Positions 1-64,000 of a stretch of DNA of 64,000 nt are shown here, piece by piece. A program made the translations under genes and the position numbers. The stretch is from assembly GCA_009768925.2 (NCBI GenBank), contig VHIT02000033.1, forward strand, positions 1 to 64,000. The letters run 5' to 3'. Each line of letters begins with the position of its first letter. Position 1 is the stretch's first letter. Source of the DNA: Cryptosporidium bovis. Lineage: Eukaryota; Apicomplexa; Conoidasida; Eucoccidiorida; Cryptosporidiidae. Below the pieces are notes generated by a model. That model did not search any database. It was not told the DNA's origin and saw only the letters and a list, made by a program, of their open reading frames with translations.

Positions 1-327
1 CGAGATATGCAAAATATCATCTTTGATATCTACAATACTTCCACTCAAACGAAACACGCCATTCCATGGTCGTACATTCATGCTCAACCTCAATACTACG
101 GAAACCGTAACAATACAACACCTCAAAAGAATCAGGCGTGCTTACAGATTCGCAAAGAGTTCACGAAAAACTGCAACACTTAGAGTCACAAACAAACCGT
201 GCGGTTCAACCAAACGCCATTTCAAATCGAAACTGACGCCAACGAACCAACAACAACTGTCAACAGACTACTTCACGAAGGTACCGGGAATTCCAGGTTG
301 AAAATTTATTACCCCGGAAAATAAAAA
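1..327 (+). CDS. Possible 3' end of an unidentified gene, frame uncertain (partial, window edge)
   Basis: By hand count this edge is about 43% G+C, far above the rest of the window, and it is rich in A and C with little T, as a sense strand might be. Frame 1 reads as N/Q/T-rich protein from the window edge, meets one TAG at 181-183, and then continues open in the same frame to TAA at 325-327. Frame 2 is open from the edge to TGA at 299-301 but gives an Arg/Lys-rich peptide. I cannot decide between a real stop at TAG, a degraded gene, a TAG lying at an intron acceptor (the local sequence is TTAG), or the frame-2 reading. A run of 14 A follows at about 323-336. Convergent with the LSm7 gene. 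No family is recognised. Confidence 0.3.
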
Positions 328-38800: not shown

Positions 38801-39384
38801 ATTCTTTCCTGCCCAACTAAGACCTTTTCCATTCCATTTATAATAAAGTATCCTCCTTGGTCATAGACGCACTCTCCTGCACTCTGAAGTTCACGTTCAC
38901 TGATGTTATGAGTCCAACAATACTCAGATCTGAGCATTATGGGAATTTTTGCAAGTGGCAATCTTGTATAGGTTGTTTCATGTACTAAAGTTTCGGTTCC
39001 ATTTTCCTCTGTTCTATATACCTTTTGTTCAGCATCAACAAAAACTGGGCTAGAATACGTTAAGTTTCTTAGTCGTGCTTCGTTTGGCCATAATCCTCTT
39101 GCAACACCTTCTCTTTCTTCTACGGATGGCCTACTAAGTGACAGCTGCCCAAATTTAATAACATAACTTATTTTAGAATCTACTTGCTCATTTGGCCTAT
39201 ACTGTGGTTGAGGTTTAATAATTATAGGTGGGTGTTCATCAACTATTTCCTGTAATTTAAATATGGTAAAGTCATTAAAACTTTCCAATTGTTGGCTAAC
39301 AAGACCTCTTTCTCGAAAATATGTTCCAACTAGTGCCCAAGAATCCTCTTGTTGAATCTCATTGTCTTTATAGTCTGAGTTCAT
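35860..39384 (-). CDS. RPB2: DNA-directed RNA polymerase II second-largest subunit RPB2
   Basis: 1,174 residues, normal for RPB2. It forms the pol II active-site wall, lobe and hybrid-binding region. Visible landmarks are [16 protein letters not shown] near the N-terminus, [40 protein letters not shown] followed by [55 protein letters not shown], and the C-terminal [20 protein letters not shown]. The zinc site is CDLCG with the later CKAC pair. The [14 protein letters not shown] and CDLCG context fits pol II rather than RPA2 or RPC2. The frame is intact. Confidence 0.97.
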   Translation of the reverse strand: [1174 protein letters not shown]

Positions 39385-46496: not shown

Positions 46497-48221
46497 ATGT
46501 TATCTGGATTTCAACCAGTTCATTTTACTCGACCTCCACAAGATTCAGTCTCAAATTCAAAATGTGGATTCCACCAATTTAGCTCATACCTAACTAACAA
46601 TTTAAACTACTCAGACAGCTGTAAGAGTAGTAAGTTTCTATTTTCATCAGATGGAAATAATTGCGACGATGGTGTTGATTCTCATAATGATTCATTTAAC
46701 AATGAACGTAGGTCGTTTCACAGTGCCCTTTCAAAAAGAACTGAAACTACAAATACAGAACCCGGTTTTGTTGTCGCGCTCTCGATTTTCTTAGCTCAAA
46801 TTGCTACGTCCAATTCATCATCAGCATGTGACGTAGGTTCTTTAACTCCATTTCATTCTGTCTGTGTTCCTCCTATACCTATAAGAGCGTATTTAGTGAG
46901 AATTGCCCAACATTTTTGTTGCAGTAATGAGTGTTTTGTTCTAGCAATTGTTTACGTTGGGCGAATTATAAAGTTAAATCGGGGCTTTTCACTGACATTA
47001 CTGAATGTACATCGTGTAATTCTTACGGCTATTATGCTAGCAACAAAGTTTTTTGATGATGTATATTTTAGCAACGCGTTTTATGCTAATATTTCCGGTG
47101 TTGGAGCACGCGAACTCAATTCTCTCGAAATTTACTTTCTTAGGTTAATAAAATTCCACCTCTTTGTTACAGAAACCGAATATGAATTACACAAAAATCT
47201 GATTATGGAGTCTGCCACCAATTCATTTATACCACCTTCTCTACCAATGAATATTATGAATATCCAAATGAGCGAGAAATCCAATGAACAATTCCAAATG
47301 GGCGAGTTTAAGTATTTTGATGGTAGGTGTATCTGTCGTAATTCTAGAAACAGTTGTTCCCATGATTTGGGTGCATATTTTTCACGGAACTACATTGAAA
47401 ATCAGGATCTGCGTTCAGAACACATAACTCATTCCTCTAATTTGAGGGAATTTGATTGGAATATACACAAGAGTGGACACAGGAATAATGAAATGGTCTC
47501 GTTTCCTAATTTATCAATAAATTCTAATATTTATGTCTCCAAGTCTTGCACAAGATTTACTACTGATATAGACGTGAATTCAACTGGGAGTTCTCAACAG
47601 GGGAGATCTCTAAGTAATTCCACACTTGGTAAATTAAGTGATCAGAAATCTTTTCTTTACGGAACTGAAAGGTACGAGAATCCAAATACTGATTATGGTG
47701 TGAGAAATAGGTATTCATTTACTGGACATAAGACACTCTTGAACCAGAGACCTTCCTTTGATAACCAGACCGATTGCAGTACAGCATCGCAAAGTGAATT
47801 TGACGAGGTGGAGCAGTTCCCAGGTAGAATTAAGAAACAATTTTCTTCAGGAACAAACCGTTCAGTTTCATTTGGAATAAACAACTCTTCATATAGAGCC
47901 TCAGATAATTCATCAGGAATCGGCCTTCAGCACAACAGTAACTCTCAATCTCAAGCTTATTCACATAAAGAACACTCAAACTCATTCCCCGACAATCGGT
48001 TTCCCTTCAATAAAGGTAGTGCGTCTGATATCCGTACTGTCTGTCAGAACGGCTACGGAAATACTTCAAAATTGCAGTTATTCCCTGCGTCTAGCTCTTC
48101 AAATTCAGTTCAAACATCGGTCTCGGCATTCAATCCCGCAGTAAGTCACTATGGAAAACTAATTATTAATTCCTACAACTTCCGTTGTGCAACAGGGCTT
48201 GATAAAAAATTGTTTGTTTAA
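46497..48221 (+). CDS. Pho80-type (P/U) cyclin
   Basis: 574 residues from ATG at 46497. The cyclin domain spans about residues 85-225: FHSVCVPPIPIRAYLVRIAQ, CCSNECFVLAIVYVGRIIKL, LTLLNVHRVILTAIMLATKF, then FDDVYFSNAFYANISGVGAR and ELNSLEIYFLRLIKFHLFVT. LNVHRLxITxxMLAxKFFDD and NxYYAxVGGIxxxELNxLE are hallmarks of Pho80-like cyclins that pair with Pho85/CDK5-type kinases. A long Ser/Asn-rich tail of about 340 residues follows, with no recognisable domain. It may partner a CDK in phosphate sensing or cell-cycle regulation; the actual CDK is not in the window. Confidence 0.88.
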   Translation: MLSGFQPVHFTRPPQDSVSNSKCGFHQFSSYLTNNLNYSDSCKSSKFLFSSDGNNCDDGVDSHNDSFNNERRSFHSALSKRTETTNTEPGFVVALSIFLAQIATSNSSSACDVGSLTPFHSVCVPPIPIRAYLVRIAQHFCCSNECFVLAIVYVGRIIKLNRGFSLTLLNVHRVILTAIMLATKFFDDVYFSNAFYANISGVGARELNSLEIYFLRLIKFHLFVTETEYELHKNLIMESATNSFIPPSLPMNIMNIQMSEKSNEQFQMGEFKYFDGRCICRNSRNSCSHDLGAYFSRNYIENQDLRSEHITHSSNLREFDWNIHKSGHRNNEMVSFPNLSINSNIYVSKSCTRFTTDIDVNSTGSSQQGRSLSNSTLGKLSDQKSFLYGTERYENPNTDYGVRNRYSFTGHKTLLNQRPSFDNQTDCSTASQSEFDEVEQFPGRIKKQFSSGTNRSVSFGINNSSYRASDNSSGIGLQHNSNSQSQAYSHKEHSNSFPDNRFPFNKGSASDIRTVCQNGYGNTSKLQLFPASSSSNSVQTSVSAFNPAVSHYGKLIINSYNFRCATGLDKKLFV

Positions 48222-48526: not shown

Positions 48527-50974
48527 CTAATTTACAGAGACCTCGATATCTAGTACTCTTCTTAATTGAGCTTGGATTCTCGTTAGAGGTTTGAGTTGAT
48601 TCTTTCTAAATTCTTTGCGCAACTTGTATCTCAAATATACGGCTTCTAGTAATTGTACAAGTGGTTCAAATGCAGCGAGCTTCTCGCGTTGAAGTTGTGC
48701 CATTTTTTTAGCTGCATCTTTAGACAAAAATACCATGGTTTTTCCAATTGCCCATGAACTCTTCGGAATATCCGTACTTTGCAGCATTTTTTCTGCAAGT
48801 ATTCTCGGGTCAGTATTCTTGTCATTTGAAATTGCCATATTACAGTATTTAAATTGGAAAATGAACTCGGAGAATGTTCTTCTGTATGAGAAACCAAGAT
48901 TTCTAAGTTGTAAGGCCTCCAAAATAGATAAAGAATGTAGTTGAATCAAGACTTTTGATGCAACCCAATCTAGTGGTTTTTTGGACTCGTTTGGTTTGAC
49001 ACATCTAATGAAGTGTGGCTCAGTTTCATCAATGATAGACATTAAGGTTCCAAGAGAGTTGATAAATTGAGATCCAATCAATTGACCTTTGGCCATTTTG
49101 CCTCTTTCAACAAATACACCTTTGAATAGACTAGAAATTAATTCATTAGAAGATTTTTGAACAACTTCCACAAGTTCTGCCCTTAGAACATCCTTGTTTT
49201 TGAATAAGAAACCAGAAGCACAATATTGAATGTCTCCAATGGTGTGGCTCACAATAAAATTCACGTTGCCACTAATTTTCGCAGGTTTTAAACATGGATT
49301 ATTCTTTAAGTTAGTATATGCTGCAGACAAAAACTTTTCGTCAGTGCCACTTGGAACCAAACATTGATCCTCCATAGCGGAAAGGATTGAATTTTTCTTA
49401 TCACATAAAGCCTCTAGAACCAACTTGTTTGATTTAAACTCCAAGTTTGCAGAAGAAATACCTTCACTGCTGTACAATTTTTGCTCTTTCTCAAAAACTA
49501 TGTCCGTGAAATTTTTCTGTAAATATTCGTTTGTAACGTTAATGAAGAACTGTTCAAGGGAGTTGTTTTTAAATACTTCAAATCCAAAGATATCTAGCAT
49601 TCCACAAAATACATTGAAGCCTTGTGGTGGCTTAATGTTCTCATTCAAACTAGAAATAATGTAGTCGAATAGTTTATCATAAAGGCCCTTTGCTAATGAG
49701 TCTTTTAACATTCTTGTTTCATCCGGTCTAAATCTTCCCTCAATAACATTTTTACCTGCATATGAAATCTTTACAATAATTTCTTTTTCTACTGCTTCTC
49801 CATCCAATTTGCAAAGTTCCATTGCATCATTAAATGATTGTCTACTTGAGTCTGCAATCTTAGAACCTTCAACACCTCCACCGACATCAACAGGCTCTAT
49901 CTCAACATTTCCAAGTAGTAATATTCCTGATACCAGAGACAATATGTCCTCAATCTGCTCGTTTCTAAGACCCATTGTCTTAAAACTTTCCATAACATCC
50001 TTGAAATCCTGGACATCATCGATATTGTCCACATCTAGGCACTGCGGATTGATGAATTTGTATTTATTCAATGGCCTGAGCTTTAATTTTTCCTTTAGTC
50101 CTGGAAAAGATTCTGCTCCTTTCAAAAGTTGGTAAAAAATGTGGTAACTTCTCTCGAGACTATCCTGAGTAATTACACGAGATTTTTCCAACAAAAAGTT
50201 ACGAACAACACCATATTCAATGCCACCAAGTTTTCCCAATTGCAATTGCATAAAACGACCGAATCTTGACGAGTTGTTATTACGTATTGTTTTGGCATTA
50301 CCAAATGCTTCTAGAACTGGATTTGCAGCCATAATTGCATTTTGAATCTTGAGGTCCATTGTACCACTCTTTGATGATGCAAAGAATTTCATAACGTGCT
50401 TAGTTGCTTCAGTTTTACCTGCACCGGACTCACCACAAACCAAAATCGATTGGCATCTAGAAACACTCATAATATTATCAAATGCTCTCTTCGCAATGGA
50501 AAATACGTGAGGAGGTAGTTTAGAAACATCATTCGAATCACGGTAACTCAAAACAGTTTCCTGACCTACAAGTCCAACGTCCTTGAATGGGTTGATTGCA
50601 ACAAGTAACGGATCAGCTGTAGTATAAATCTGGTTTACTAAGTACCTCTGCTTCAAGAAATCTAGGACACAGGGTATTGTTGTAAAAGGGACCAATCCAA
50701 TATCTGGATATGCATTTGGATCGAAGGGTTCATTAGCAATGTAACATGTGTCAGGCTTTGCTTCAAAAACTGTATTGGAATCGACTTCCTTGAGAGAAAG
50801 CATCTCCGCGGTGGATTCACCTTGGACGATGCATTTTGCAAAAAGACTATCTGGATCATTTAAGACTGAAGGTGCAGAATCACACCAAACAATTGAACCC
50901 TTTGCTGTCTTCTTGTCAAATACGAACTTTCCTGAGACCTTACGAGTCAAACCTTTGACATCCTTAGCACTCAT
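48527..50974 (-). CDS. MyoA: Class XIV myosin A (glideosome motor)
   Basis: 815 residues, the small size typical of apicomplexan MyoA (about 820), with no tail domain. MyoA drives gliding and host-cell invasion under the plasma membrane in the glideosome. The N-terminal 75 residues are a short SH3-less segment. The P-loop is GESGAGKT (181-188), switch I is NNNSSRFGRF, and LDIFGFE with the adjoining NSLEQFFINVTNEYLQ marks switch II and the relay helix. The neck (LRKEFRKNQLKPLTRIQAQL) is a degenerate IQ region where a MTIP/MLC1-type light chain binds. The motor is intact. AGCGCGCCTA sits upstream at 51103-51112. Confidence 0.96.
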   Translation of the reverse strand: MSAKDVKGLTRKVSGKFVFDKKTAKGSIVWCDSAPSVLNDPDSLFAKCIVQGESTAEMLSLKEVDSNTVFEAKPDTCYIANEPFDPNAYPDIGLVPFTTIPCVLDFLKQRYLVNQIYTTADPLLVAINPFKDVGLVGQETVLSYRDSNDVSKLPPHVFSIAKRAFDNIMSVSRCQSILVCGESGAGKTEATKHVMKFFASSKSGTMDLKIQNAIMAANPVLEAFGNAKTIRNNNSSRFGRFMQLQLGKLGGIEYGVVRNFLLEKSRVITQDSLERSYHIFYQLLKGAESFPGLKEKLKLRPLNKYKFINPQCLDVDNIDDVQDFKDVMESFKTMGLRNEQIEDILSLVSGILLLGNVEIEPVDVGGGVEGSKIADSSRQSFNDAMELCKLDGEAVEKEIIVKISYAGKNVIEGRFRPDETRMLKDSLAKGLYDKLFDYIISSLNENIKPPQGFNVFCGMLDIFGFEVFKNNSLEQFFINVTNEYLQKNFTDIVFEKEQKLYSSEGISSANLEFKSNKLVLEALCDKKNSILSAMEDQCLVPSGTDEKFLSAAYTNLKNNPCLKPAKISGNVNFIVSHTIGDIQYCASGFLFKNKDVLRAELVEVVQKSSNELISSLFKGVFVERGKMAKGQLIGSQFINSLGTLMSIIDETEPHFIRCVKPNESKKPLDWVASKVLIQLHSLSILEALQLRNLGFSYRRTFSEFIFQFKYCNMAISNDKNTDPRILAEKMLQSTDIPKSSWAIGKTMVFLSKDAAKKMAQLQREKLAAFEPLVQLLEAVYLRYKLRKEFRKNQLKPLTRIQAQLRRVLDIEVSVN

Positions 50975-51265: not shown

Positions 51266-54200
51266 TTATGGCTCCACATTTTCAGTTTCGAAAAATGAAA
51301 ATGAAGTTGATGTTTCCATTTTATCTATTCTACTTATTCTATTATGTAAATCCTTGATAATTTCTATTCTCCTTGACTTTGATTCCACAAAGTTTTCAAA
51401 CATTTTACTTTCAGCGGAGTACACACCCTTGCATATTTGAATTAATAATTTTTGATAGTTGATTTTTTCTCCATTTTGCTTTTGATTTGTCCTAATTAAT
51501 TCCAGCAGTGAATTTTTTCTCAGATAGTTAAGGGCGGAGATGCAGATCTTTATTGTTTCTTCAGGGTTTAATTTCTCGATTCCTTCATTTTTTGGGATAA
51601 TGTCAGATTGGGGAATGTCTTCTATTACCATTAAGAAGCCGATATTATATGCAACTTCAATTGCTGTTTTTAGAATTAATTCATAGTTGAAGAAGAAATT
51701 CAATCTCTTAATTCCGGTTTCTCTAACAAAGTCATTAAATGAATATTGAACCATTTGGGTCAGATTTTTAACTGATAATTTTAAAATTACATTTGAGAAT
51801 AAATTAGAAGAAACTCTTAATGAATAATCTTTGGACCATAAACTAACTATCTTATTAATTTCAATCCAACCCAAAATATTGTCTTCCAACGTTACTTTTT
51901 GAGATTCTGCAATTAAATTTTTTAATCTGAGGTTAAATAGTTTTTTATTTTTCATTGAAAAGATATTGTGGTTCAGAGAGATCAACTCAGAAAATGTTGT
52001 ACAGATGGCGTCTCTTATTTGAATTCCATCATTTGTAGTTAGATCTATTACCGTCCCACCGTCTTTTCCACTCCTAGATTTTACGACTTGAATACTATTT
52101 TGTTCCACTTCTTTTTCATCTAACTCTGATATTGAATTAGAATAAGTACCGATCCATGATTTACATTGATCTTTTAAATCATCTAAACTAGTATCTTGTT
52201 CTATTTCCAATTCCATTTTTTTATTGGTCTTTAATCGCAAATATTTGAGTGAATCTGCAAATGCATAGTTGATAACCACATTATTTAGGAAAAACGAATC
52301 AGAAAAGACGAACATCTTTCTCTTTATAAGATCATCCAACATCTCTGCAGGTACGCGTTGTAGGTATTGTACACCCATTGTTCTTTTATCGAAGTATACC
52401 TTTAATTTAACATCAGATTCCAAGGCAGTAACCATAATGACATCCGGAAATCCATAACTATGTGCTGCTGTTTCTATTGATTCATAAACAGTTTGTCGCG
52501 TTCTATATACTTTTTCAGTAGCTAGGTGATTACTATAATCGGAAACAGGATGCTTTTCTATTAATAAAGTCAGTGAATTATACATAAAGTCAAAAATATG
52601 AGGTTTGGAATATAATAAAATAATAGTTTTTCCGTATTTGTTTTCTATTTCTTTACATATTGAATTTATTTGTCCAAGTAAAATTTTTGCTTTGTCAAAC
52701 CATTTAATGCAATGTACAAATATTGTATTCATCCGTGAGATTTCAAGTTCAGTGTTTTCCGCTTTATTCATATTAAAGAGATCGATAGGATTTATATATG
52801 AAATAAATAACCGTCTTATCAATTCGGCATTAAATATTTTATCTGTACTATAAATAGGAGAATGAAATGTGCTTATCCAAGACCATAATTCAATTGCTGG
52901 GGTTTTAGAAATTTCCAATATTTGCGCTTCAGTAAAATTCATTCTAGCATACAAATCACTACTCTCTGCGTGTGTTATAAAGGTATTTAGAACCAATGCA
53001 GGATCCCAAAAATGGAACTTGTAAAGTCCACTACTTTGATTTAGTTTTATATGCTTTGAAGCTGATTTAGAGAACAAACTCCATTCTAATGTAAATAGGC
53101 TGGAACTAGTCGGCCAAATAAGTTTACTTCCCAATTCTGCATCAGCTTGCTTTATACGTCTTATTAATTCCATTAAGAATATCTCACGGATATTCACGTT
53201 AAATAACGGTAGAACTCCTTCCCATAAATCAACAGCTTTTTTGCATTCTTCGTTGAGTGTTTTTGATAAATTTTCGCCTTTAATGACAGAACTGATTAAA
53301 TGAGTAATTGGACCGGTTTTACTCATGTAAATTTTACAAATTTCGGCGAGAGTTTCCACCGGATTTTCACGAGTTTTAAAAACTAAATCAAACAAATTAA
53401 CATTGCTAAACATGGTGGGTAGTATGGTCGGATCTTGCGTAAAAAGAATATCTCTTGATTCTATAGGTAGTAATTTTGCCATCTCTTCAATAATAGAACC
53501 CAAGAAGCTTGTTTCAGTAAAAACCGTACTTCTTGACATAAGAGTCGAAAATTTTGCAAACCAGTCTAAACCATTCGTATAAGTGAGGGATAAATGTTCC
53601 CAGTACATACTATTTTCACTTATTCTAATTGCTTCGTAGGCTTGTTTGATACTATTCCACTTCTTCCCCGATAAAGGCATACTTTTTTGAATAATTGCCT
53701 CAATTTTTTTTTCTAATGGTGATTTGTAATCAATTTGGAGGTTTTGAAGGAATTTACCACTGATTACACCATCATATTCTTTTTTTATGCGACCAATTTC
53801 TCTAAGAGGTATTTCACTTTTTACTTGACCATTAATATAATACATATTTTCTGATGAGTTAACATTGTTGCTTCTGGTAGAAATAATTGGTGTGACTATA
53901 CTTTCAAATTTCACTGCTTTATCCCAGCTTACTGGTAGTGGTGACCTTAATTCAAAGAAAATTCCTGGGTAAACAAATTTATTTGGTTCACTGAATAATG
54001 GTGCATGATAAACTACCATTAATTTTTCGATATCCGTCCTATATACGCTGTCGTGGCCTATCTTTAATTTTATTAATCTCTTTTCTTCTAATAACAGTTC
54101 ATTGAAAAATATCACAATATGCGAATAAGTCAAATTTATATAATGTTCTGCGAATAAACACCTAAAAAGGTGTATTAAATAATATGGTAAGTTATCGTGT

Positions 54201-57200
54201 TCTTCTTCCCAACTATTCAGTTTTCTGTTTATACTGGACTGAGTATCCTCTATTTCATTATAAAAGTAATTTATGACTTTGTAGAAGAAAAACATATCAA
54301 ATATGTTAAACGACCTGTTATAGACGTCCACATTTTTCATTGCAGGAAATTTTCTAGGTTTTAGTCTAACGTTCCACTGTTTAGCAACCTTTGATATCAT
54401 AAGATAGTCATCTTTTAATAACCTTGAACCTTTATGAATATATCTTTGTAGCATTCCTGCCCAATATACTGCTCTATTTATCTGCCAAACTGACAGCCCA
54501 TTACAATTGTATTTAGAGTAGACTTTGGCTTCTGAAATAATTCGAAAATTGTTTTCCTCTGGAATCTCAATTTTTCCTATTGAAGGCCAAATTTGAGGAA
54601 TTAGTTTAACTTTTTCAATGCCACGATCTTCTGTTGTTGCAGACAATGTAAGTTTAGTTCTCCAATATTTTCCCTTAAACCTATTAAACTTTAACATAGG
54701 TGGTGGGGATAAATTTTTTTTCTCCATTTTCAGATCTGAAAATTCATTGTTATCATTAATTTGAAACAGAGGAAAATTGATTTTCGTTGGATTTGGAGTG
54801 AAACTCGATTTTACATTAATTGAATTTGAATAATAATCTTCAATTTGCCTATCGGCTGTTTCTCTAATATTATTATCATTATCCTCGATGTTTATAAGTC
54901 TGGCTTCTTCCATTAAGAATTTCAAATAGACAATAAACGCTGCACGGACTGAAAGAGCAGAATTTGAAATTGACAGCCTAAAGTGTTGAATCCAACTTGA
55001 AAATGAAAGATCTGAACTACTATAGTTTTTATAAGATTCAAATAGATGTGAAACGTTGATCTTCCACATATTATTAATTGCTAGATTTGATAATTTGTTC
55101 GTTACAAATGCCATATGTACACATTTGTTTATTTCTGACTGATGAAGAACGCGACCAACCATTATTTCCGAATAATTTACTGGCCTCTTATATTCAGTTT
55201 TTAGAAGATGTGATATGTAATTGTAGTCTTCTGCAGGCAAATGTAGGTAATCAAAATAATTCAATGGTAAGTTTTTAATATCAATCAGTGATCTGTGAAA
55301 TGGTGTAGTATATCTGTAGCTTGAACTTGTCTTGAATAAGTCTTCGATCACAACAATGTTTCTAATATGAGATTGATCAAAAAAACCATGTTCAGCGATA
55401 ATTTCGGTTGTTGATATATCATTTTCAGTGTTTCTTAAAACTGATTTGAAAAAACTATAGAGCAAAGATTCTGCAACAGGAACAGTAAACCATTCTTTCC
55501 AAGAAAAATTCATTTCAGGATTAGTTTTTGTTATTTCAGAATAATGTTCACTGACCTTTTTCTGTAATACAGAACTCCAACAATTCCTTTCTAATGCATA
55601 ATTTGGACTGGTATTAGTACTTTTTACAAATGACCACCATTTACAAATTGAACTAATTGGAAATTCAAATTGCAATTCTTCAAGGAGTCCCCTTTTTGGG
55701 GAGAGTGTTGGAACACGTGAAATAAACAGTCCTTTTGAAGTAGTCTCAAGGAAAGAACTAAGTGAGACAAGCATTCTAATTTCAGAGTCAGATAGCCCAA
55801 TGCAATCATCAATGTTATAGAATTTAACCGGATCTCTTGTTATCAAAAATGGCTCTATTGACTTTAAGGAAAGTGTTGGGAAATCAGTAATTTTGAATTC
55901 AGGTATAACTTCTGGATGAATTTCATCAATACTGAACGTTATTGATGAAGCAATAGGTCTGTTTTCCATTGTAAAACTCAATTTATAACATTCAAGCAAG
56001 TTTTCATCTTTATACTGGGAAGCATCATATGTTGGAATACCTGGCAAGTCAAATGTTTCTTGTATCCATGTTGTGGCATTTTTTACAAGAATACGAACTA
56101 GTTGTTTGTTACTTACCCATTTTTGTTCTCTAAACGCTCTGAAGAAGCTGTCTCCGAACCCATTTTGGAAAACTTTGTTTTTTACTATTTCTTTAACAAT
56201 ATCACAGATAATAAATGGATCAAATTCACCATGAAAAATAGGTTCAATAAATTTTTTCTGAAATGCCAAGAAATATACTCTAAAAGCAATCATTAAATTC
56301 ACCACCCATAAACCATCGCAACTAGATTCGAGCTCTGGATCTACTAATCCAACTGTAGAATCAACAAATGGATTCAATCTAAGTCTGGAAACAAAGTGAA
56401 CTTGGTCCATTGTAATTATTTTAGGATTTTCCGGAGTTTCAACTAGTGAAGTTATTCTTTTATCAAATAATTTTTTAATATCAGATAGATCCATCGTGTT
56501 TCTATTTATTTTTTTCATTCTCACTTCTCCAACCCTTAACAGGAATGCTGTTTGTGCCCAGATTATAAAGGTCATCATCAAGTATTCACCCATAGATTTT
56601 TGCAACCAGGGTACTTTATCACCAACTATATCTTCGAGTGCATTACCTGCATCTGAGGCAGTGACAGAAGCTTCACCAACAAAATTTTTTGGGAATATAG
56701 TTGAAACCCAATTACACAACTCCACAACTGGAATTTCGAATGCTGTATTGAAATATAATTTTGAAAGAACTGCCTTTAGGACTATAGTTACAGTATTTTG
56801 GAAAGAGATTAATAAATAAACTTGCCATTCATCTAAATACTGACACAAAGAGGAAACTTCCTCGAATGTTAATTTATTTTCTATTATTTCTGTCTCTTCT
56901 GCCTCAAATTTATTGAATGAAGCAATTACGTCCTTACGTAGATAGTATTTTAATTCAAGAAATACATTATTTGGTGGATTGAATTCCGGAAATATGACGT
57001 TTTTTGGTAGATCTATTGCTCTGTTTGAAAATATTTGGGGAGTTGAATATATAAATTCAATTCTTTTTTCTGGAGTAATTTGTGCCGGAAAGTTTACGCT
57101 CTCCATCAATAAACAATATCTCAATACATATTCTGCAACAATATCTCTTGACATAAAGGGAAGTATATTACTCAATACATCTCCAAAAGAGTACTTTACA

Positions 57201-59935
57201 GGATGTTTCCACCACAAACATAAAGAATTCACAGGGATAACAATGCTGTTAGTACCAATCTTTTTAAGGTCAATATAATTGTTTACAAACGCTTCTACTA
57301 TAGCAGCGAGCACGTGTAAATAGTTTTTTATATGATAACCTACTCCCAAACAGGCTTGAATTTCTGTATTTGAAATAATACTCTTCAAGTTGGTGTTGAA
57401 GCCATAAGGTTCTAATGATGAAACAAGCTTTTTGTCAATGGGATAAAATTTAATTTCGAATGGAAGGAAGGGAAATAATGGTGCTGAACATATTCTTATT
57501 GAATGAACTCTTAAAATTGAATCGTGAATATGGCTTTGATCAATATAAAAGTGGTTTTCATGATTTTTTTTAAATTGGTTGCATAATTCAACAAAAAACT
57601 TGGTTATTATCTTTTTTTCCTTGACATTTGGATTTTGTTTAAATGGTAAATATTCGAAAACACCATTTTCTAATATCACATTGGTAAGATAGGCACCCAT
57701 TTTATCTGGGTTGTAAGGATCATTCATATCCTTTTCAATCAATAAGAAAGCTTTACAAAATAGTGTAATAGGGATTACAGATTCTTTTGACCCCGGAAAT
57801 AAGTGAGAAATAAATCCGTTTGCAAATGCATCCAAACAAAGTAAATAGTTTAACTGCTCAGGTAATAATGATGTACACTCTTCTAGAGCCCAAATATCTC
57901 TGCCACTGTATACTGTTCCTGATGATAACATTTCTAATTCAGTTTTATACTCCGAGGCATTGGCCAAAGGACCTTTTGGTGGAACTCCCAAAACACCACA
58001 GAATAGTAGCTCCAGTTCGTATAAAATCCCTATTAATGACTGTTTATTTGTTAAAAAGCTTTCATTTTTGCTCAATTCAATAGATACCTCCTTGCAAAGC
58101 TCGCGGAAGAGATAACTGATATCACTATATATTCCTCCAATTACGAGGCTTAACTTTCCTTTATCAGAAAGAGTTTCCAAATATTTTAAACAAAGGTCAA
58201 ATACCGTTTCACCAGAATTGTCAAAAATATTTCCAACTTTAGTGATAAGAGGTTGAGTGAAATCAAAAATCACTAGTGAATCAGAATAATGTTCTGAAGA
58301 TATTCTAAAAATTGCAGAAATGATGCTCCCAACTGGAACAAACCAATGACTTAGATTTTCATACACTATATCACTTACACATTCTCCTGTGTTACAGTTT
58401 TCCAATTCAGCCCAAACATTATCCTCATTTGCTAACAACGGAGTCAAACCTCTTTTTGTTAAAGACTTTTTATAGGAGTCAATAAACCTTTCTCTAATTA
58501 GTTTTTGTTTGCTTATTCCAGGTCTGGATTCTTCTTTATAATGTTCATCTTGTACATCAGATTCAACACTATCTTTCACTTCAATTCTTCGCAATCTGTC
58601 AATGTATTTATCTGAGTTCTTAATTATATCTGGTAGATAATACTCTTGCGCTATTTTGCAAAGTTGCATTGCAGCCGTTTTGAGAATATGTTTACTTGTA
58701 ATCACTGTTTCCCCATCTTTCAAGTAAAACAGCGTTTGTTTTCCATCAATTAGTCCCTTTTCAATTTGAGAATTTCTGAATAAAATGACCTCTAGACAAG
58801 AATTCTGAAAGTTTGACAAAGAGAAATTTGGGGATGCCTGATAAAGTACAGAAGTACTTATAGAGCTTGGGAGATCTTTCACTTCATAATCTGAATCTTC
58901 ATTAAATTGTTTTTGTGCTTCAACAACTGATTGCCATGCAAGAATTAATTGTGCTTCATATCCTATAGAATCAAATTTTTCAGACAAATTCCCTTGCTTT
59001 ATTAATTCTAGAATGTTAACCCCAGCTGACCTCTTTGACGCCAATTGTTTTGTTATTACTCCTGCTGTGGAAACCGGTAATTTGGCACCAGAGACTTTAC
59101 CATGAATTGATTGACGAGTAGCTCTTTTTGGGCGTGCAATTATTCTCTTTTGTTCTTGTTTAATATCAATTTTGGTTTTTTTATCTTGTTCTTTAGCTAA
59201 TTTGGTCTTTTTTGGCTGAATTGTCACAAGTTTTCTCTTCACCGCTTCAACCCTTCTAGGATCGGAAACTAAATACTTAGTGTGATCATCTGCTCCAGAA
59301 AGCAATAAAAATGACATATCTGCATCTGGATGAGACGAACTACTCTCTTGAGCAGTTGACTTTGCTAGATCATTCAATATTTCTTTTGCCTCAGGATCTA
59401 CAAATACTTTATCGACCCCACATTTTTTTATATGTGCGAAATAACTTGCAAGAGCAGGTATTTCGAGAACATCTGCACCATATTGCAACAAACAGTATTG
59501 AATTTCTCTTGAAACTCTATTGCAAAATTGAATATTACTATTGTCTACTTCGACACCAAATATAGTTGAATCATCATCAATGACTACAGGAGTATAACAA
59601 TCCATTTCTATTCTAGACAAAAGTCTTTCACAGGCCTTCATTATCTCAACAGAAGCAAACATTTCCCTTCCTCCAGCATATGAATAAATCACAGGAAGCA
59701 TTTTCTTCTTTTTTAGAAGTGATATTTCTCTATCTACCAAATTCCACATTTCAAACTTATCAGTATTCCCATATTTGCTTTTTGGTCTTGAAAATATAGC
59801 CCTTGCTCTTTCAAAAGATAAAGTATCATATTTATTATCAACACCTGCTCCATAAATAAATAAAATTGCATTAATAAAATAATTCAAATAAATTAATAAT
59901 TTGAAATATTTAATAGAGACTTTAATTGGACACAT
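51266..59935 (-). CDS. Giant secreted protein (2,889 residues) with about 180-residue degenerate repeats
   Basis: Residues 1-29 are a signal peptide (FKLLIYLNYFINAILFIYGAG). Residues about 200-300 form a basic Lys/Arg linker (KRKLVTIQPKKTKLAKEQDK). The rest is a hydrophobic-core, mostly helical-looking sequence with few cysteines and no recognised domain. A weak motif, [VI]-P-[VI]-x-x-[LI]-C-x-W in its best form (IPVNSLCLWWK, IPVVELCNWVS, FPISSICKWWS), recurs with mean spacing of about 540 nt, giving 13-15 units. No transmembrane segment or GPI signal was seen at the C-terminus. It ends just before a poly-T run. No family is recognised. It is divergent from a second giant secreted gene. Confidence 0.85.
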   Translation of the reverse strand: MCPIKVSIKYFKLLIYLNYFINAILFIYGAGVDNKYDTLSFERARAIFSRPKSKYGNTDKFEMWNLVDREISLLKKKKMLPVIYSYAGGREMFASVEIMKACERLLSRIEMDCYTPVVIDDDSTIFGVEVDNSNIQFCNRVSREIQYCLLQYGADVLEIPALASYFAHIKKCGVDKVFVDPEAKEILNDLAKSTAQESSSSHPDADMSFLLLSGADDHTKYLVSDPRRVEAVKRKLVTIQPKKTKLAKEQDKKTKIDIKQEQKRIIARPKRATRQSIHGKVSGAKLPVSTAGVITKQLASKRSAGVNILELIKQGNLSEKFDSIGYEAQLILAWQSVVEAQKQFNEDSDYEVKDLPSSISTSVLYQASPNFSLSNFQNSCLEVILFRNSQIEKGLIDGKQTLFYLKDGETVITSKHILKTAAMQLCKIAQEYYLPDIIKNSDKYIDRLRRIEVKDSVESDVQDEHYKEESRPGISKQKLIRERFIDSYKKSLTKRGLTPLLANEDNVWAELENCNTGECVSDIVYENLSHWFVPVGSIISAIFRISSEHYSDSLVIFDFTQPLITKVGNIFDNSGETVFDLCLKYLETLSDKGKLSLVIGGIYSDISYLFRELCKEVSIELSKNESFLTNKQSLIGILYELELLFCGVLGVPPKGPLANASEYKTELEMLSSGTVYSGRDIWALEECTSLLPEQLNYLLCLDAFANGFISHLFPGSKESVIPITLFCKAFLLIEKDMNDPYNPDKMGAYLTNVILENGVFEYLPFKQNPNVKEKKIITKFFVELCNQFKKNHENHFYIDQSHIHDSILRVHSIRICSAPLFPFLPFEIKFYPIDKKLVSSLEPYGFNTNLKSIISNTEIQACLGVGYHIKNYLHVLAAIVEAFVNNYIDLKKIGTNSIVIPVNSLCLWWKHPVKYSFGDVLSNILPFMSRDIVAEYVLRYCLLMESVNFPAQITPEKRIEFIYSTPQIFSNRAIDLPKNVIFPEFNPPNNVFLELKYYLRKDVIASFNKFEAEETEIIENKLTFEEVSSLCQYLDEWQVYLLISFQNTVTIVLKAVLSKLYFNTAFEIPVVELCNWVSTIFPKNFVGEASVTASDAGNALEDIVGDKVPWLQKSMGEYLMMTFIIWAQTAFLLRVGEVRMKKINRNTMDLSDIKKLFDKRITSLVETPENPKIITMDQVHFVSRLRLNPFVDSTVGLVDPELESSCDGLWVVNLMIAFRVYFLAFQKKFIEPIFHGEFDPFIICDIVKEIVKNKVFQNGFGDSFFRAFREQKWVSNKQLVRILVKNATTWIQETFDLPGIPTYDASQYKDENLLECYKLSFTMENRPIASSITFSIDEIHPEVIPEFKITDFPTLSLKSIEPFLITRDPVKFYNIDDCIGLSDSEIRMLVSLSSFLETTSKGLFISRVPTLSPKRGLLEELQFEFPISSICKWWSFVKSTNTSPNYALERNCWSSVLQKKVSEHYSEITKTNPEMNFSWKEWFTVPVAESLLYSFFKSVLRNTENDISTTEIIAEHGFFDQSHIRNIVVIEDLFKTSSSYRYTTPFHRSLIDIKNLPLNYFDYLHLPAEDYNYISHLLKTEYKRPVNYSEIMVGRVLHQSEINKCVHMAFVTNKLSNLAINNMWKINVSHLFESYKNYSSSDLSFSSWIQHFRLSISNSALSVRAAFIVYLKFLMEEARLINIEDNDNNIRETADRQIEDYYSNSINVKSSFTPNPTKINFPLFQINDNNEFSDLKMEKKNLSPPPMLKFNRFKGKYWRTKLTLSATTEDRGIEKVKLIPQIWPSIGKIEIPEENNFRIISEAKVYSKYNCNGLSVWQINRAVYWAGMLQRYIHKGSRLLKDDYLMISKVAKQWNVRLKPRKFPAMKNVDVYNRSFNIFDMFFFYKVINYFYNEIEDTQSSINRKLNSWEEEHDNLPYYLIHLFRCLFAEHYINLTYSHIVIFFNELLLEEKRLIKLKIGHDSVYRTDIEKLMVVYHAPLFSEPNKFVYPGIFFELRSPLPVSWDKAVKFESIVTPIISTRSNNVNSSENMYYINGQVKSEIPLREIGRIKKEYDGVISGKFLQNLQIDYKSPLEKKIEAIIQKSMPLSGKKWNSIKQAYEAIRISENSMYWEHLSLTYTNGLDWFAKFSTLMSRSTVFTETSFLGSIIEEMAKLLPIESRDILFTQDPTILPTMFSNVNLFDLVFKTRENPVETLAEICKIYMSKTGPITHLISSVIKGENLSKTLNEECKKAVDLWEGVLPLFNVNIREIFLMELIRRIKQADAELGSKLIWPTSSSLFTLEWSLFSKSASKHIKLNQSSGLYKFHFWDPALVLNTFITHAESSDLYARMNFTEAQILEISKTPAIELWSWISTFHSPIYSTDKIFNAELIRRLFISYINPIDLFNMNKAENTELEISRMNTIFVHCIKWFDKAKILLGQINSICKEIENKYGKTIILLYSKPHIFDFMYNSLTLLIEKHPVSDYSNHLATEKVYRTRQTVYESIETAAHSYGFPDVIMVTALESDVKLKVYFDKRTMGVQYLQRVPAEMLDDLIKRKMFVFSDSFFLNNVVINYAFADSLKYLRLKTNKKMELEIEQDTSLDDLKDQCKSWIGTYSNSISELDEKEVEQNSIQVVKSRSGKDGGTVIDLTTNDGIQIRDAICTTFSELISLNHNIFSMKNKKLFNLRLKNLIAESQKVTLEDNILGWIEINKIVSLWSKDYSLRVSSNLFSNVILKLSVKNLTQMVQYSFNDFVRETGIKRLNFFFNYELILKTAIEVAYNIGFLMVIEDIPQSDIIPKNEGIEKLNPEETIKICISALNYLRKNSLLELIRTNQKQNGEKINYQKLLIQICKGVYSAESKMFENFVESKSRRIEIIKDLHNRISRIDKMETSTSFSFFETENVEP

Positions 59936-60323
59936 TATATGATACTATTGTGATTTTACAAACTTATTTTTAAATTTTTCTGTATATAAATTCGTTCACA
60001 TTAATCACGATAAATTTACCCTAGTTTACTAATTTTCATATATACAACAATATTATTGAATCAAATATTTATGATGTTTCAATTTGGTCTGATTACTTTA
60101 TATTTAACATTTGTGGCCTCTGCCGCTCACATTTACATGGAAAAAAAGCAATTTACTATGAATCTAAAAAATCATGGCGGGTTTATTTATTAATCTTTTA
60201 AAGCCAAAAATGTTATTTGTATAAAAGTCCATTTATTTTCGCAATAAAAACTTCTCTTATACTTCTTATTGGAGTATTATTGAATAATTAACATATGATG
60301 CCCCCGTTATTTGTGTGTTAAAA
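59936..60323. promoter_or_regulatory. Bidirectional spacer between two giant secreted genes
   Basis: 388 nt between divergent start codons, AT-rich, with TGGCGGG at 60175-60181 near the middle and a GTGGCC/GCCGC pair around 60113-60126. It probably holds a shared bidirectional promoter. No hidden exon is seen. Confidence 0.45.
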
Positions 60324-63300
60324 ATGATTATTCGAAAAAGAACAAGAAACAATACATTTTTTGTAAATGATTACATATTGTTTTCAATATTTGTTCTTGT
60401 ATTTTACTTGAAACTCTGTATTATAATTGGTGAAAATCTAAGTAAATCAATACAGACTCAAACTAGTTTTGTAACTGGGAGTAATTTGACTGATTCAAGA
60501 AATTTTGAAGTTGAAACAGGTGATACAAAAGAAAGTACTTTGTTCCGTCTAACATGTGGTGTTGATGGAAAGGATTATTCAAAAAGTGGAATTAAATTTA
60601 TAAAACAACATTTGAAATCATTTTCAGCCAATGAATTTAACAAACTAAAGTATTTAAAACTGCTACCTGTTCTTTACCTCGGTAAAAATACTGAATTAAT
60701 GCTAAAGTCATTTATGAGAGGAGAACTGTTAGGTGCTCCATTACGTCTGAGAACTAGAATAATTCAGAGTAGTGATTCTATTCCAATTATTGAGGATGAT
60801 TTCCAAATAATTAAGGATACAGATGATCCAGGAGATGATGAAATGAGAATAATAAATAACCGTGTGGCAAATGAAATAAGGTACACAACAATTTTGTGTG
60901 GTGGTGAGATAGTGGCGTTTTTGCCAGTAATAATATATATTAAGGAACTAGGTAAATCTGGGATCAACCTAGGAAATGACCCTATAATTATGGGAGGAAT
61001 TTCAATGTTTGAAAATGATAAAGCAACTTCACGTCGCAAGCATGCAGAAATTGAAATGAGGTATTTGTCTACCCTCCCCTTTGCAGATGAAATATACAGT
61101 GGGACGAAGATTAGAAAGCGAGGTTTATTAGTAGGTGCACCTGAATTCATTAAAGAAAGGGGGTTTTATGATTCCGAAGACATTAATTCTCAAAACAAGC
61201 AAGATTTAGAAGAAGGTGTAATTATAGGAATGAAGGTAAGAGCAAGAGAGGAATATTTTCAACATGCAATTGAAAATATTTTTCAATCTACACAACCAAA
61301 AAGTGTATATAACACAATTTTTGATTTTGATTTTCCGGAGGCCTTTTTTTCCACGTTCAATGGTTCACATATAGACAATAGAATTAGTGATTTTGGAGTT
61401 ATTGGTCATAAAAAAGGAATTCCACATCAAATTACTACTGCAGACGCAATGAACTTTTCAACACTTAATAGAATAAAATCTGACCTTGGTAAGTATAAGG
61501 TGCTTAAAAAAAGTAATGATTATTCAGTTGATGGATCTGTTGGGATAGATGAAAATATTGGTGATTTTAGTGTTCAAGAGAAAAATGTTGCTAGCAATAT
61601 TGAATATTACAACCCTGATAGCATTCTAATAGGAAAAAACTTGAGACCTAATGATCAAATATCTAGAGGTTATTCTGAAAGCAAGGATATTTTTTTAAAT
61701 TCAAATATTCCAGACTCTAAAATAGCGGAAATAAGTAATTTCCCCCTATTCAAGGAGGTACCTAAAGATATCTCAAAAATAATGAATTATGACCGGAATA
61801 AGTTTTTGGGTGAAATTAAAAATTTAACATCGAGTAGTGAGTTTAGCAATGCATTTAAAAAATTCCCTGCATATCTATCCCAAACAAAAATTCTTCCGGT
61901 GTCAACTCAAGCATATATCTTTTGGGAGTCGATGAAATATTCAAATGAAATATTAAATGAAAAACATGGAATTAGGATAGCAAACTTTCCCAAAAATGAA
62001 GTACCTAGTTTAGATATACTTCCAAAAAAAATACCAAGGGAAAAAGACGAGATCACTCATTCTTGTTATAGAATAATAAGATTCTTTCAGAAGAAAAAAA
62101 CTCCTTTTATATTTATTAAAAAATCAGAGAGTAATGGTAGCAATCAGCTTGAACTTATCAATCCATTGAGATCAAAATCCATCAAAACTTATAAAGACTA
62201 CGCAAAAATATTGTGTAACTCTGTTCTCCCGAATATTTTTATTTCTTCGGTACATATAATTTTTGAGAGAATATTGGTTCAAAGAGAAAATAGATTCTAT
62301 GAAAGGTTAGATGAGCGTAAGCAAGAGTTTGAAATTCAAGAGAGAGAAGAAAAGTTATTGAGAAAGATAGGAGAATCGGTGACTTCAAGGTCAAATATAA
62401 CACCATATTTAATTGAGAATCCATATGAAAGGTACCTTAATGCATGGAGAAGAAGTATCGGATATTTTGGTTCATTTTTATATCCCAAAAAAATACAAAC
62501 ATTCGAGAAGATTTATAATCTTGTCAAGTTTGGTCCTGAAATAATTAAAAAAAAGAATGGTGATCTGTCTCCTGAACAAGTTAGAAATGCAGTTTCAAAG
62601 GCTGTCGTAAAGTTAGTAGATGAAAATTTCACAATTTTGGGTTGCAGCGATTTATTTTTAAATACAGGTGAGATCGAATCATTTATTATTAAAATATTCT
62701 CAACAAATTTTGGTATTTCGATTGATAAATTGATATATGAAATGCCTATTAAACCTGAAATAAATATAAGTAATTCTAAAAGTTTAAAAGTTGATGATTT
62801 ATATACTTGGTGCATTGAATTTATAAGACCTATTATCAAATATAACAAGAACATACAGAGTATAACTGAGAATGAGCTGATAAAGGGAAAGGAAGACGAA
62901 AAATTTAAATCAAAAAATACTTCTGAGAATAAAGCACAAAATATTGGGCAAAAAGCTATAACTTTGCTTGAAAATGGGTATGAAACATCGTGTTCTATTT
63001 TCAGTTCTTTTCTAACCATGAATATAGTCAACTTTAACTTGTGTTTTGGGAAGAATGATAGCAAAATTCCCAAATTAATTAATAATATATTTCTTCACCA
63101 AGCGTTAACCGACGAATCAAGCCAAATACCAGTTGAGCTTGGACTTAAAATGTTCGAAACAACTTATTTTGACATTTTCGAAAGGGTTTCTGAGCAACAT
63201 GGAATTCATTTTATATCAAATGAAATGAGAAAAGTTGGAAACAGCCTTCCTGTTTTCGATTTGATGTCAAAATATTTACCTATTGAGTTAACTTCAGAAA

Positions 63301-64000
63301 CAATCAACTTCACCGAAATAGAAAAAATTTTTTCTGTGGTTTTTGAGAATATTGTGAAAAAAAAAGATAATGGGTTTGAATTCTTTAACGAAAATATAAT
63401 GGCCAGATATATTTTAGGAGTATTGAAAGAACAAGATCTTATTGTACCTAAAGACATTAAAACTGTTCCAAAGTTCCCAGTTAATCATACATATCCCTGG
63501 TCAACACTATTTTATCCAGGACTAGTGAATTGGTGTAGTCAAATGATTCACTCTTTAGTAGATAAAGGTCTAATTAAAAATAGGAAAACTGGTGAAACAT
63601 CAAATAAAGAATCAATTAAACCAATAATTGAGAATACATGTAGAGAAGAAATAATATTTGGAATAAGGAATAACATAGAATATGAAGCAGACGAAATATT
63701 GAGAAGAAACTTTGCATGTCACCTTGGTGCCTCACTCGTTTACTGGTATTATAAAAGACCAATGCCAAAGTGGATATTCTTTGATCAATGGGAGACCGTA
63801 TTTGATCCAGAACCGGAAATAACAATTACGGAAGAGCCTGAAATTACTTTAACTACTTTTACAATACTAAAGTGTATTGTTGATTTAGAATTTCCCACAC
63901 TTCCAAAAATAGGGAAGGATAAGACAGAAATTCGAAAAGAGTTATCTAGTCAAAAAATATCTACAGAAACAAGAAAAGGTATGAATTTATCTGTATGGAA
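60324..64000 (+). CDS. Giant secreted or membrane-anchored protein, partial (runs off window)
   Basis: The frame is open from ATG at 60324 to the window end, 1,225 codons, with no stop; I read the whole frame. Residues 1-36 have a basic start and a hydrophobic segment (YILFSIFVLVFYLKLCIIIG), a signal peptide or signal anchor. The remainder is Lys/Asn/Ile-rich and helical-looking with scattered cysteines. I recognise no domain. It carries motifs like LPVSTQAYIFWESMK, IPVELGLKMFETTY and DDLYTWCIEFI that resemble the recurring motif of the divergent neighbour, but spacing is not regular. The sequence AAAAGGTATG near 63974 could be a splice donor at the very edge. The gene may be a paralogue of its neighbour. 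Confidence 0.8.
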   Translation, partial: MIIRKRTRNNTFFVNDYILFSIFVLVFYLKLCIIIGENLSKSIQTQTSFVTGSNLTDSRNFEVETGDTKESTLFRLTCGVDGKDYSKSGIKFIKQHLKSFSANEFNKLKYLKLLPVLYLGKNTELMLKSFMRGELLGAPLRLRTRIIQSSDSIPIIEDDFQIIKDTDDPGDDEMRIINNRVANEIRYTTILCGGEIVAFLPVIIYIKELGKSGINLGNDPIIMGGISMFENDKATSRRKHAEIEMRYLSTLPFADEIYSGTKIRKRGLLVGAPEFIKERGFYDSEDINSQNKQDLEEGVIIGMKVRAREEYFQHAIENIFQSTQPKSVYNTIFDFDFPEAFFSTFNGSHIDNRISDFGVIGHKKGIPHQITTADAMNFSTLNRIKSDLGKYKVLKKSNDYSVDGSVGIDENIGDFSVQEKNVASNIEYYNPDSILIGKNLRPNDQISRGYSESKDIFLNSNIPDSKIAEISNFPLFKEVPKDISKIMNYDRNKFLGEIKNLTSSSEFSNAFKKFPAYLSQTKILPVSTQAYIFWESMKYSNEILNEKHGIRIANFPKNEVPSLDILPKKIPREKDEITHSCYRIIRFFQKKKTPFIFIKKSESNGSNQLELINPLRSKSIKTYKDYAKILCNSVLPNIFISSVHIIFERILVQRENRFYERLDERKQEFEIQEREEKLLRKIGESVTSRSNITPYLIENPYERYLNAWRRSIGYFGSFLYPKKIQTFEKIYNLVKFGPEIIKKKNGDLSPEQVRNAVSKAVVKLVDENFTILGCSDLFLNTGEIESFIIKIFSTNFGISIDKLIYEMPIKPEINISNSKSLKVDDLYTWCIEFIRPIIKYNKNIQSITENELIKGKEDEKFKSKNTSENKAQNIGQKAITLLENGYETSCSIFSSFLTMNIVNFNLCFGKNDSKIPKLINNIFLHQALTDESSQIPVELGLKMFETTYFDIFERVSEQHGIHFISNEMRKVGNSLPVFDLMSKYLPIELTSETINFTEIEKIFSVVFENIVKKKDNGFEFFNENIMARYILGVLKEQDLIVPKDIKTVPKFPVNHTYPWSTLFYPGLVNWCSQMIHSLVDKGLIKNRKTGETSNKESIKPIIENTCREEIIFGIRNNIEYEADEILRRNFACHLGASLVYWYYKRPMPKWIFFDQWETVFDPEPEITITEEPEITLTTFTILKCIVDLEFPTLPKIGKDKTEIRKELSSQKISTETRKGMNLSVW

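What the first reader, a model, noticed from the sequence alone, without database searches (positions are those of the whole stretch)
51266..59935. Giant secreted protein built from about 15 degenerate tandem units of about 180 residues
A weak proline-centred motif recurs through the protein. On the plus strand the Pro codon, or its equivalent in eroded units, falls near 58875, 58336, 57771, 57235, 56731, 56113, 55660, 55057, 54493, 53935, 53402, 52899, 52350 and 51859, with one possible further copy near 59410. Successive gaps are about 450-620 nt, mean about 540. The best copies read IPVNSLCLWWK, IPVVELCNWVS, FPISSICKWWS and VPVGSIISAIF. I recognise no known family, so this may be an undescribed secreted repeat architecture.
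Basis: partly seen in the sequence, partly recalled or inferred. Interest (0 to 1): 0.85.

Follow-up and report, generated by a model that had tools for sequence, protein, structure and literature searches.

The report
Giant secreted parasite protein, partly repetitive
A very large, probably secreted protein of an intestinal parasite, already known as a gene, contains a run of about five (perhaps six) repeated helical blocks, each apparently pinned by a pair of cysteines, and it shares its front end with the gene next door; its role is still unknown.

Summary
The repeat is real, but clearly detectable in only about a third of the protein. The ORF (51266-59935, minus strand, 2889 aa, one exon) is the orthologue of C. 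parvum CPHLJ_7g3800/cgd7_3800, named LSP1 in 2007, first of seven 'large secretory protein' genes clustered on chromosome 7. The window also holds most of LSP2. Profile-profile self-comparison of 11 orthologues scores up to 44.5, against 23.7 (reversed) and 24.1 (column-shuffled) controls. It defines five tandem units (Cys687, 862, 1031, 1206, 1378; spacing 169-175 aa), the fourth weak, and a partial sixth at Cys1811. The constant feature is a cysteine pair 38-53 residues apart, not the proline. AlphaFold gives the same helix order in each unit, at modest confidence and low for unit 4. LSP1 and LSP2 share an N-terminal domain, and a second cysteine-hairpin module (three copies each) occurs in both. 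No Pfam or PDB sequence relative was found. Best reading: a genus-specific, secreted, probably disulphide-clamped helical scaffold, likely acting with other LSPs. The architecture is supported; the role is inferred.

The parts
51266..59935 (-). LSP1 orthologue, 2889 aa, single exon
   Evidence: 10 other orthologous sequences, 32-94% identity over 96-100%; C. parvum CPHLJ_7g3800, taken to be cgd7_3800 = LSP1
59846..59935 (-). N-terminal hydrophobic, signal-peptide-like segment (residues 1-30, approximate)
   Evidence: 19-residue hydropathy above 1.6 at the N-terminus in 10 of 11 orthologues; no SignalP available
59390..59737 (-). N-terminal domain shared with LSP2 (residues 67-182)
   Evidence: HHalign 95.5 against 19.4 and 19.3 reversed; own-genome single-sequence search E 1.8e-4, 29% identity
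58868..58960 (-). marginal trace of a unit before the array (residues 326-356), without the Cys pair
   Evidence: 16.7 against 16.8, 19.2 against 17.7, 16.2 against 15.0
58070..58222 (-). type-2 Cys hairpin (residues 572-622, Cys582-Cys614)
57389..57910 (-). repeat unit 1 (residues 676-849; Cys687/Cys727)
56882..57388 (-). repeat unit 2 (residues 850-1018; Cys862/Cys906)
56351..56881 (-). repeat unit 3 (residues 1019-1195; Cys1031/Cys1074)
55841..56350 (-). repeat unit 4, more diverged (residues 1196-1365; Cys1206/Cys1244)
   Evidence: held out: HHalign 19.5 against reversed maximum 16.8; HMMER places it in register, 1206-1342, but at 3.9 bits, below an unrelated ORF at 5.0; helices in phase in a low-confidence part of the model
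55256..55840 (-). repeat unit 5 (residues 1366-1560; Cys1378/Cys1431)
54377..54514 (-). partial sixth unit, weak (residues 1808-1853; Cys1811, helices A and B)
   Evidence: HHalign 19.5 against 16.8 reversed and 21.4 against 15.0 for LSP1, 18.4 for any reversed sequence; helix phase +5..24 and +33..42 in a low-confidence model
53228..53353 (-). type-2 Cys hairpin, found when held out (residues 2195-2236, Cys2200-Cys2231)
   Evidence: HHalign 20.1 against reversed maximum 16.1
51407..51574 (-). type-2 Cys hairpin (residues 2788-2843, Cys2798-Cys2835)
59936..60323 (.). 388-bp intergenic region between the divergent LSP1 and LSP2 genes
60324..64000 (+). LSP2 orthologue (1697 aa; continues to 65417 on the contig)
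60624..60986 (+). LSP2 copy of the shared N-terminal domain (LSP2 residues 101-221)
63525..63650 (+). type-2 Cys hairpin in LSP2, found when held out (residues 1068-1109)
   Evidence: HHalign 21.8 against reversed maximum 16.1

Best explanation
This is the Cryptosporidium large secretory protein LSP1. After a signal peptide comes an N-terminal domain shared with LSP2, then a type-2 Cys hairpin, and in the middle a tandem array of five (probably six) diverged units of about 173 aa and five helices (A-E). In each unit a Cys just before helix A and a Cys in helix B sit 38-53 residues apart and most likely form a disulphide. The array would make an extended, oxidised helical rod. The protein most likely works as a structural scaffold, stored in a secretory organelle or deployed outside the parasite, and assembles with other LSPs through the N-terminal domain. 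Shown: orthology, gene cluster, repeat units, Cys pairs, LSP1-LSP2 homology. Predicted: helix order. Inferred: signal peptide, disulphides, rod shape, scaffold role, partnership.
For: Internal repeat far above two controls. A unit found when held out. Second Cys present in 50 of 50 aligned unit sequences and first in 48 of 50; both are invariant in all 11 proteins for all five units. Helix A from +3/5 to +24/29; helix B, containing the second Cys, starts at +34 to +49 and ends at +46 to +62; then C, D and E, in each of five units. LSP1-LSP2 domain. Cluster position, and co-expression as stated in a paper. No enzymatic family found by Pfam.
Against: The model of 660-1565 has mean pLDDT 60.6 and pTM 0.39: units 1-3 mostly 70-90, unit 5 mixed, unit 4 and its linker about 31-58, so the packing of units is not known and the helix order of unit 4 is unsure. 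Residues 1575-2720 gave pLDDT 44.1. Hydropathy also passes the threshold in a borderline stretch near residue 633 in 8 of 11 orthologues and near 2753 in 5 of 11, so a membrane-bound protein is not excluded. No localisation, expression or interaction data were seen for this protein. An enzyme of unknown fold is not excluded.
Confidence: 0.5

Rival explanations
1. The whole 2889-aa protein, and perhaps all LSPs, is one long array of 12-15 copies of the same unit, most eroded beyond sequence detection.
For: Cysteine hairpins recur outside the array (582-614, 2200-2231, 2798-2835). A partial unit lies at 1808 and a marginal trace at 326-356. Residues 1661-1711 and 1935-1985 resemble each other (30.6 against 23.7 reversed). 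The LSP2 region 1057-1109 scores weakly with both module profiles.
Against: Apart from 1808-1830 and the marginal 326-340, no region outside 676-1560 exceeds the reversed control with the unit profile. The type-1 and type-2 profiles do not align (score 8.6). The C-terminal model is too poor to tell.
Confidence: 0.23
2. The repeat region is a secreted enzyme or a binding platform for a small ligand, not a scaffold.
For: Many strictly conserved Trp, Arg and His residues among the orthologues; several diverged units could form one site.
Against: No catalytic family by Pfam, PDB sequence or fold search. What the units share is mostly a Cys and hydrophobic pattern; one Asn column (33 of 50) is the only polar one at 55% or more.
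Confidence: 0.15
3. The repeat is chance: helical, biased composition produces look-alike motifs.
Against: Two independent controls, the shuffled-motif count, spacing of 175, 169, 175 and 172 aa, and Cys conservation in 11 orthologues.
Confidence: 0.03

Closest known systems
C. parvum large secretory proteins (LSP1-LSP7, cgd7_3800-cgd7_3870)
   Same: Orthologue of the gene named LSP1; LSP2 as divergent neighbour and a following cluster of ORFs, most with hydrophobic N-termini by eye.
   Different: The passages read from the 2007 paper describe location, co-expression and an upstream motif, not the repeat units, the Cys pairs or the LSP1-LSP2 domain.
Helical solenoid repeats (TPR, HEAT, ARM, HAT)
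   Same: Tandem all-helical units.
   Different: Unit of about 173 aa with five helices and a Cys pair; no match of the window protein to any Pfam family.
Serum-albumin-type triple domains (disulphide-rich helical domains of ~190 aa)
   Different: Z in the range of common arrangements, no sequence match, different Cys pattern (recalled).

Membership tests
Cryptosporidium large secretory protein (LSP) cluster | Orthologous to a cgd7_3800-3870 gene | tested here: met
   44% identity over 99% to CPHLJ_7g3800; cgd7_3800 is LSP1 in Table 1. That the two numbers name the same gene is inferred from the matching number.
Cryptosporidium large secretory protein (LSP) cluster | Position in a cluster of LSP genes | tested here: met
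   LSP2 is the divergent neighbour, followed by ORFs at 65557, 70423, 72232, 75735 and 79626. In 4 species the source's LSP1 and LSP2 locus tags are consecutive. Labels LSP2-LSP7 are by order and size, not by comparison with the C. parvum proteins.
Cryptosporidium large secretory protein (LSP) cluster | N-terminal signal peptide | tested here: inconclusive
   Hydrophobic N-terminus above threshold in 10 of 11 orthologues; no signal-peptide predictor available.
Cryptosporidium large secretory protein (LSP) cluster | Shared upstream DNA motif and co-expression | tested here: inconclusive
   No exact 6- or 7-mer (2 or more G/C) in all five upstream regions and no such 8-mer in four or more of five; degenerate motifs not tested; no expression data here.
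Cryptosporidium large secretory protein (LSP) cluster | Sequence homology among the LSPs | tested here: inconclusive
   Met for LSP1-LSP2. Not detected between LSP1 and LSP3-LSP7, which were single sequences; LSP2-LSP3 gave 30.6 against 21.4 reversed, at low probability.
TPR / HEAT / ARM / other Pfam repeats | Match to a Pfam repeat model | tested here: not met
   0 families for the window protein even at E 10; among 11 orthologues only scattered hits at E 0.057 or worse.
Any solved fold | Structural match | tested here: inconclusive

The most novel reading that the evidence does not exclude
The LSP cluster encodes a set of genus-specific secreted scaffolds built from a repeat fold not seen before: disulphide-clamped five-helix units and Cys hairpins. 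They assemble through a common N-terminal domain into a Cryptosporidium-only extracellular or organellar structure.
Probability: 0.22. Interest if true: 0.7.

Novelty: new variant of a known kind. Interest (0 to 1): 0.45.

Why it matters
The LSP genes were set apart as a co-expressed cluster by 2007, but the searches made here listed no paper that by title, abstract or the passages seen describes their architecture. Unit boundaries, the Cys pairs and the shared LSP1-LSP2 domain turn an intractable 2889-aa protein into pieces that can be expressed and solved, and suggest that LSP1 and LSP2 work together. Orthologues came back from nine named Cryptosporidium species or genotypes, intestinal and gastric (host site recalled), so the protein has been kept across the genus as sampled.

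Tried and rejected
The unit profile was tried on LSP2-LSP7 and other ORFs of the region. HMMER: the best LSP (LSP5, E 0.064) did no better than an unrelated ORF (E 0.044); the best reversed ORF had E 0.2. HHalign: only a weak LSP2 hit, 1057-1079, 20.5 against 18.0 reversed LSP2 and 18.4 for any reversed sequence. LSP3-LSP7 did not exceed reversed controls by a meaningful margin with either profile.

LSP2's own internal repeat (1349-1464 with 1474-1585) scored 34.9 against 22.6 reversed, and LSP1 1661-1711 resembles 1935-1985 (30.6 against 23.7 reversed). The first was used only for the type-2 hairpin; the second was not pursued.

Relatives in bacterial and archaeal genomes: none confirmed. In the own genome, single-sequence searches gave no paralogue for the whole protein or the repeat region, and one, LSP2, for the N-terminal domain; only one or two candidates were scored in each.

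Fold search of the 660-1565 model gave no significant match. Low-scoring rows include dynein, mitochondrial RNA polymerase, the Rb pocket and serum albumin; a cyclin-like or albumin-like reading was dropped as too weak. A resemblance of the strand-helix motif to degenerate EF-hands was considered; there is no Pfam support and it was not tested further.

The C-terminal half was modelled to test the 15-unit claim. Confidence was too low, so that claim stays open there and the model was not searched for folds.

A shared upstream DNA word was sought and not found. Two recent papers on secreted proteins were searched for this cluster by name without a hit. One passage of PMC3542205 lists cgd7_3840 (LSP5) as a conserved hypothetical protein among UV-responsive oocyst genes.

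Full report
What it is. The ORF at 51266-59935 (minus strand) encodes 2889 aa without internal stops. The protein searches returned orthologues over 96-100% of its length in C. xiaoi (94% identity), C. ryanae (76%), C. felis, C. canis, C. ubiquitum, the chipmunk genotype, C. parvum and one unnamed source (43-45%), and in C. andersoni and C. serpentis (32%). The C. parvum protein is CPHLJ_7g3800. The number matches cgd7_3800, listed as LSP1 among seven 'large secretory proteins' clustered on chromosome 7 and described as co-expressed (PMC1779779: passages and one short section read). In this genome the divergent neighbour at 60324 (1697 aa) would be LSP2, and ORFs at 65557-84611 would be LSP3-LSP7 (labels by order and size). 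So the gene is known, and the window contains the start of that cluster.

Is the repeat real? The literal motif occurs four times, against 0.047 expected in shuffles. Comparing 200-aa windows of the 11-sequence profile with each other gave scores up to 44.5 in 861 non-overlapping pairs. The same pairs with one side reversed gave at most 23.7, and shuffled columns at most 24.1 in 325 pairs. The significant pairs link residues 681-740, 856-911, 1029-1123 and 1372-1495. A profile of the cores of these four units, with the rest held out, finds a fifth unit at 1208-1254 (19.5 against 16.8 reversed) and the first helix of a sixth at 1808-1826 (19.5). HMMER with the four whole units also places the fifth in register (1206-1342), but at 3.9 bits, no better than an unrelated ORF at 5.0. 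With five units in the profile, the regions above the LSP1 controls were 1808-1830 (21.4 against 15.0; 23.1 against 17.7) and, marginally, 326-340 (16.2 against 15.0; 19.2 against 17.7; but 16.7 against 16.8, and reversed LSP2 and LSP3 reach 18.0 and 18.4).

Anatomy of a unit. Starts at Cys687, 862, 1031, 1206 and 1378 are spaced 175, 169, 175 and 172 aa. In an alignment of 50 unit cores (5 units, 10 of the 11 proteins; one near-duplicate row dropped) the second Cys is present in 50 and the first in 48; the two exceptions look like an alignment slip, since Cys1206 is invariant in the 11-protein alignment. The AlphaFold model of residues 660-1565 (6 sequences; mean pLDDT 60.6, pTM 0.39) shows the same order in all five units. 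Helix A runs from +3/5 to +24/29. Helix B starts at +34 to +49, ends at +46 to +62 and contains the second Cys. Then come helices C, D and E. Confidence is mostly 70-90 in units 1-3, mixed in unit 5, and about 31-58 in unit 4 and its linker. This supports one fold repeated, but not how units pack, and is weak for unit 4.

Beyond the array. The residue 1811 region keeps helix phases +5..24 and +33..42 in a poor model (pLDDT 44.1 overall). Residues 1661-1711 and 1935-1985 resemble each other (30.6 against 23.7 reversed); this was not pursued. A second module, a CX30-36C helical hairpin, recurs at 582-614, 2200-2231 and 2798-2835 in LSP1, and at 1071-1106, 1412-1444 and 1533-1565 in LSP2. One hairpin in each protein was found when held out (20.1 and 21.8 against 16.1 reversed). 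The two module profiles do not align with each other. LSP1 and LSP2 share an N-terminal domain (67-182 with 101-221; HHalign 95.5 against 19.4 and 19.3 reversed), confirmed by a single-sequence search of the genome (E 1.8e-4, the only other match among two candidates scored). Homology of LSP1 to LSP3-LSP7 was not detected, but these were single sequences.

How it most likely works. The N-terminus is signal-like in 10 of 11 orthologues by hydropathy. Later stretches pass the same threshold only borderline, near residue 633 in 8 of 11 and near 2753 in 5 of 11. In all 11, 28 cysteines are invariant, and no enzyme family is found. This fits an oxidised, secreted, largely helical scaffold. Conserved Cys pairs inside each unit are expected to form disulphides in the secretory pathway (inference). 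The shared N-terminal domain and the stated co-expression of the cluster suggest that LSP1 and LSP2 act in one assembly (inference). Where and when this happens is not known from anything seen here.

Verdict. The interpretation as an unfamiliar repeat architecture holds for residues 676-1560. The gene family was known; the unit, the Cys pairs, the hairpins and the LSP1-LSP2 domain were not seen described in the listings and passages returned.

Noticed in passing
60624-60986 and 59390-59737: LSP1 and LSP2, divergent neighbours, share an N-terminal domain of ~115 residues; a search of the own genome with the LSP1 copy found only these two places (two candidates scored).
   Followed up: yes
L002:4368-5078 (LSP2 residues 1349-1585): LSP2 has an internal repeat of its own with period about 125 aa (score 34.9 against 22.6 reversed).
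   Followed up: partly
53981-54955 (LSP1 residues 1661-1711 and 1935-1985, and between): Two ~50-residue stretches of LSP1 outside the array resemble each other (30.6 against 23.7 reversed).
   Followed up: no
48527-50974: Myosin motor (815 aa, Pfam Myosin_head, E 6.6e-181), directly beyond the 3' end of LSP1 on the same strand.
   Followed up: no
L003:423-2159 and L002-L004: The further ORFs of the cluster are mostly large with hydrophobic N-termini by eye; the one tested (579 aa) has no Pfam match at E 0.001.
   Followed up: partly
46497-48221, 40984-43368, 35860-39384, 25427-27757: Ordinary conserved genes: cyclin, COG4, an RNA polymerase second-largest subunit, and an HSP90 with a signal-like N-terminus.
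   Followed up: no
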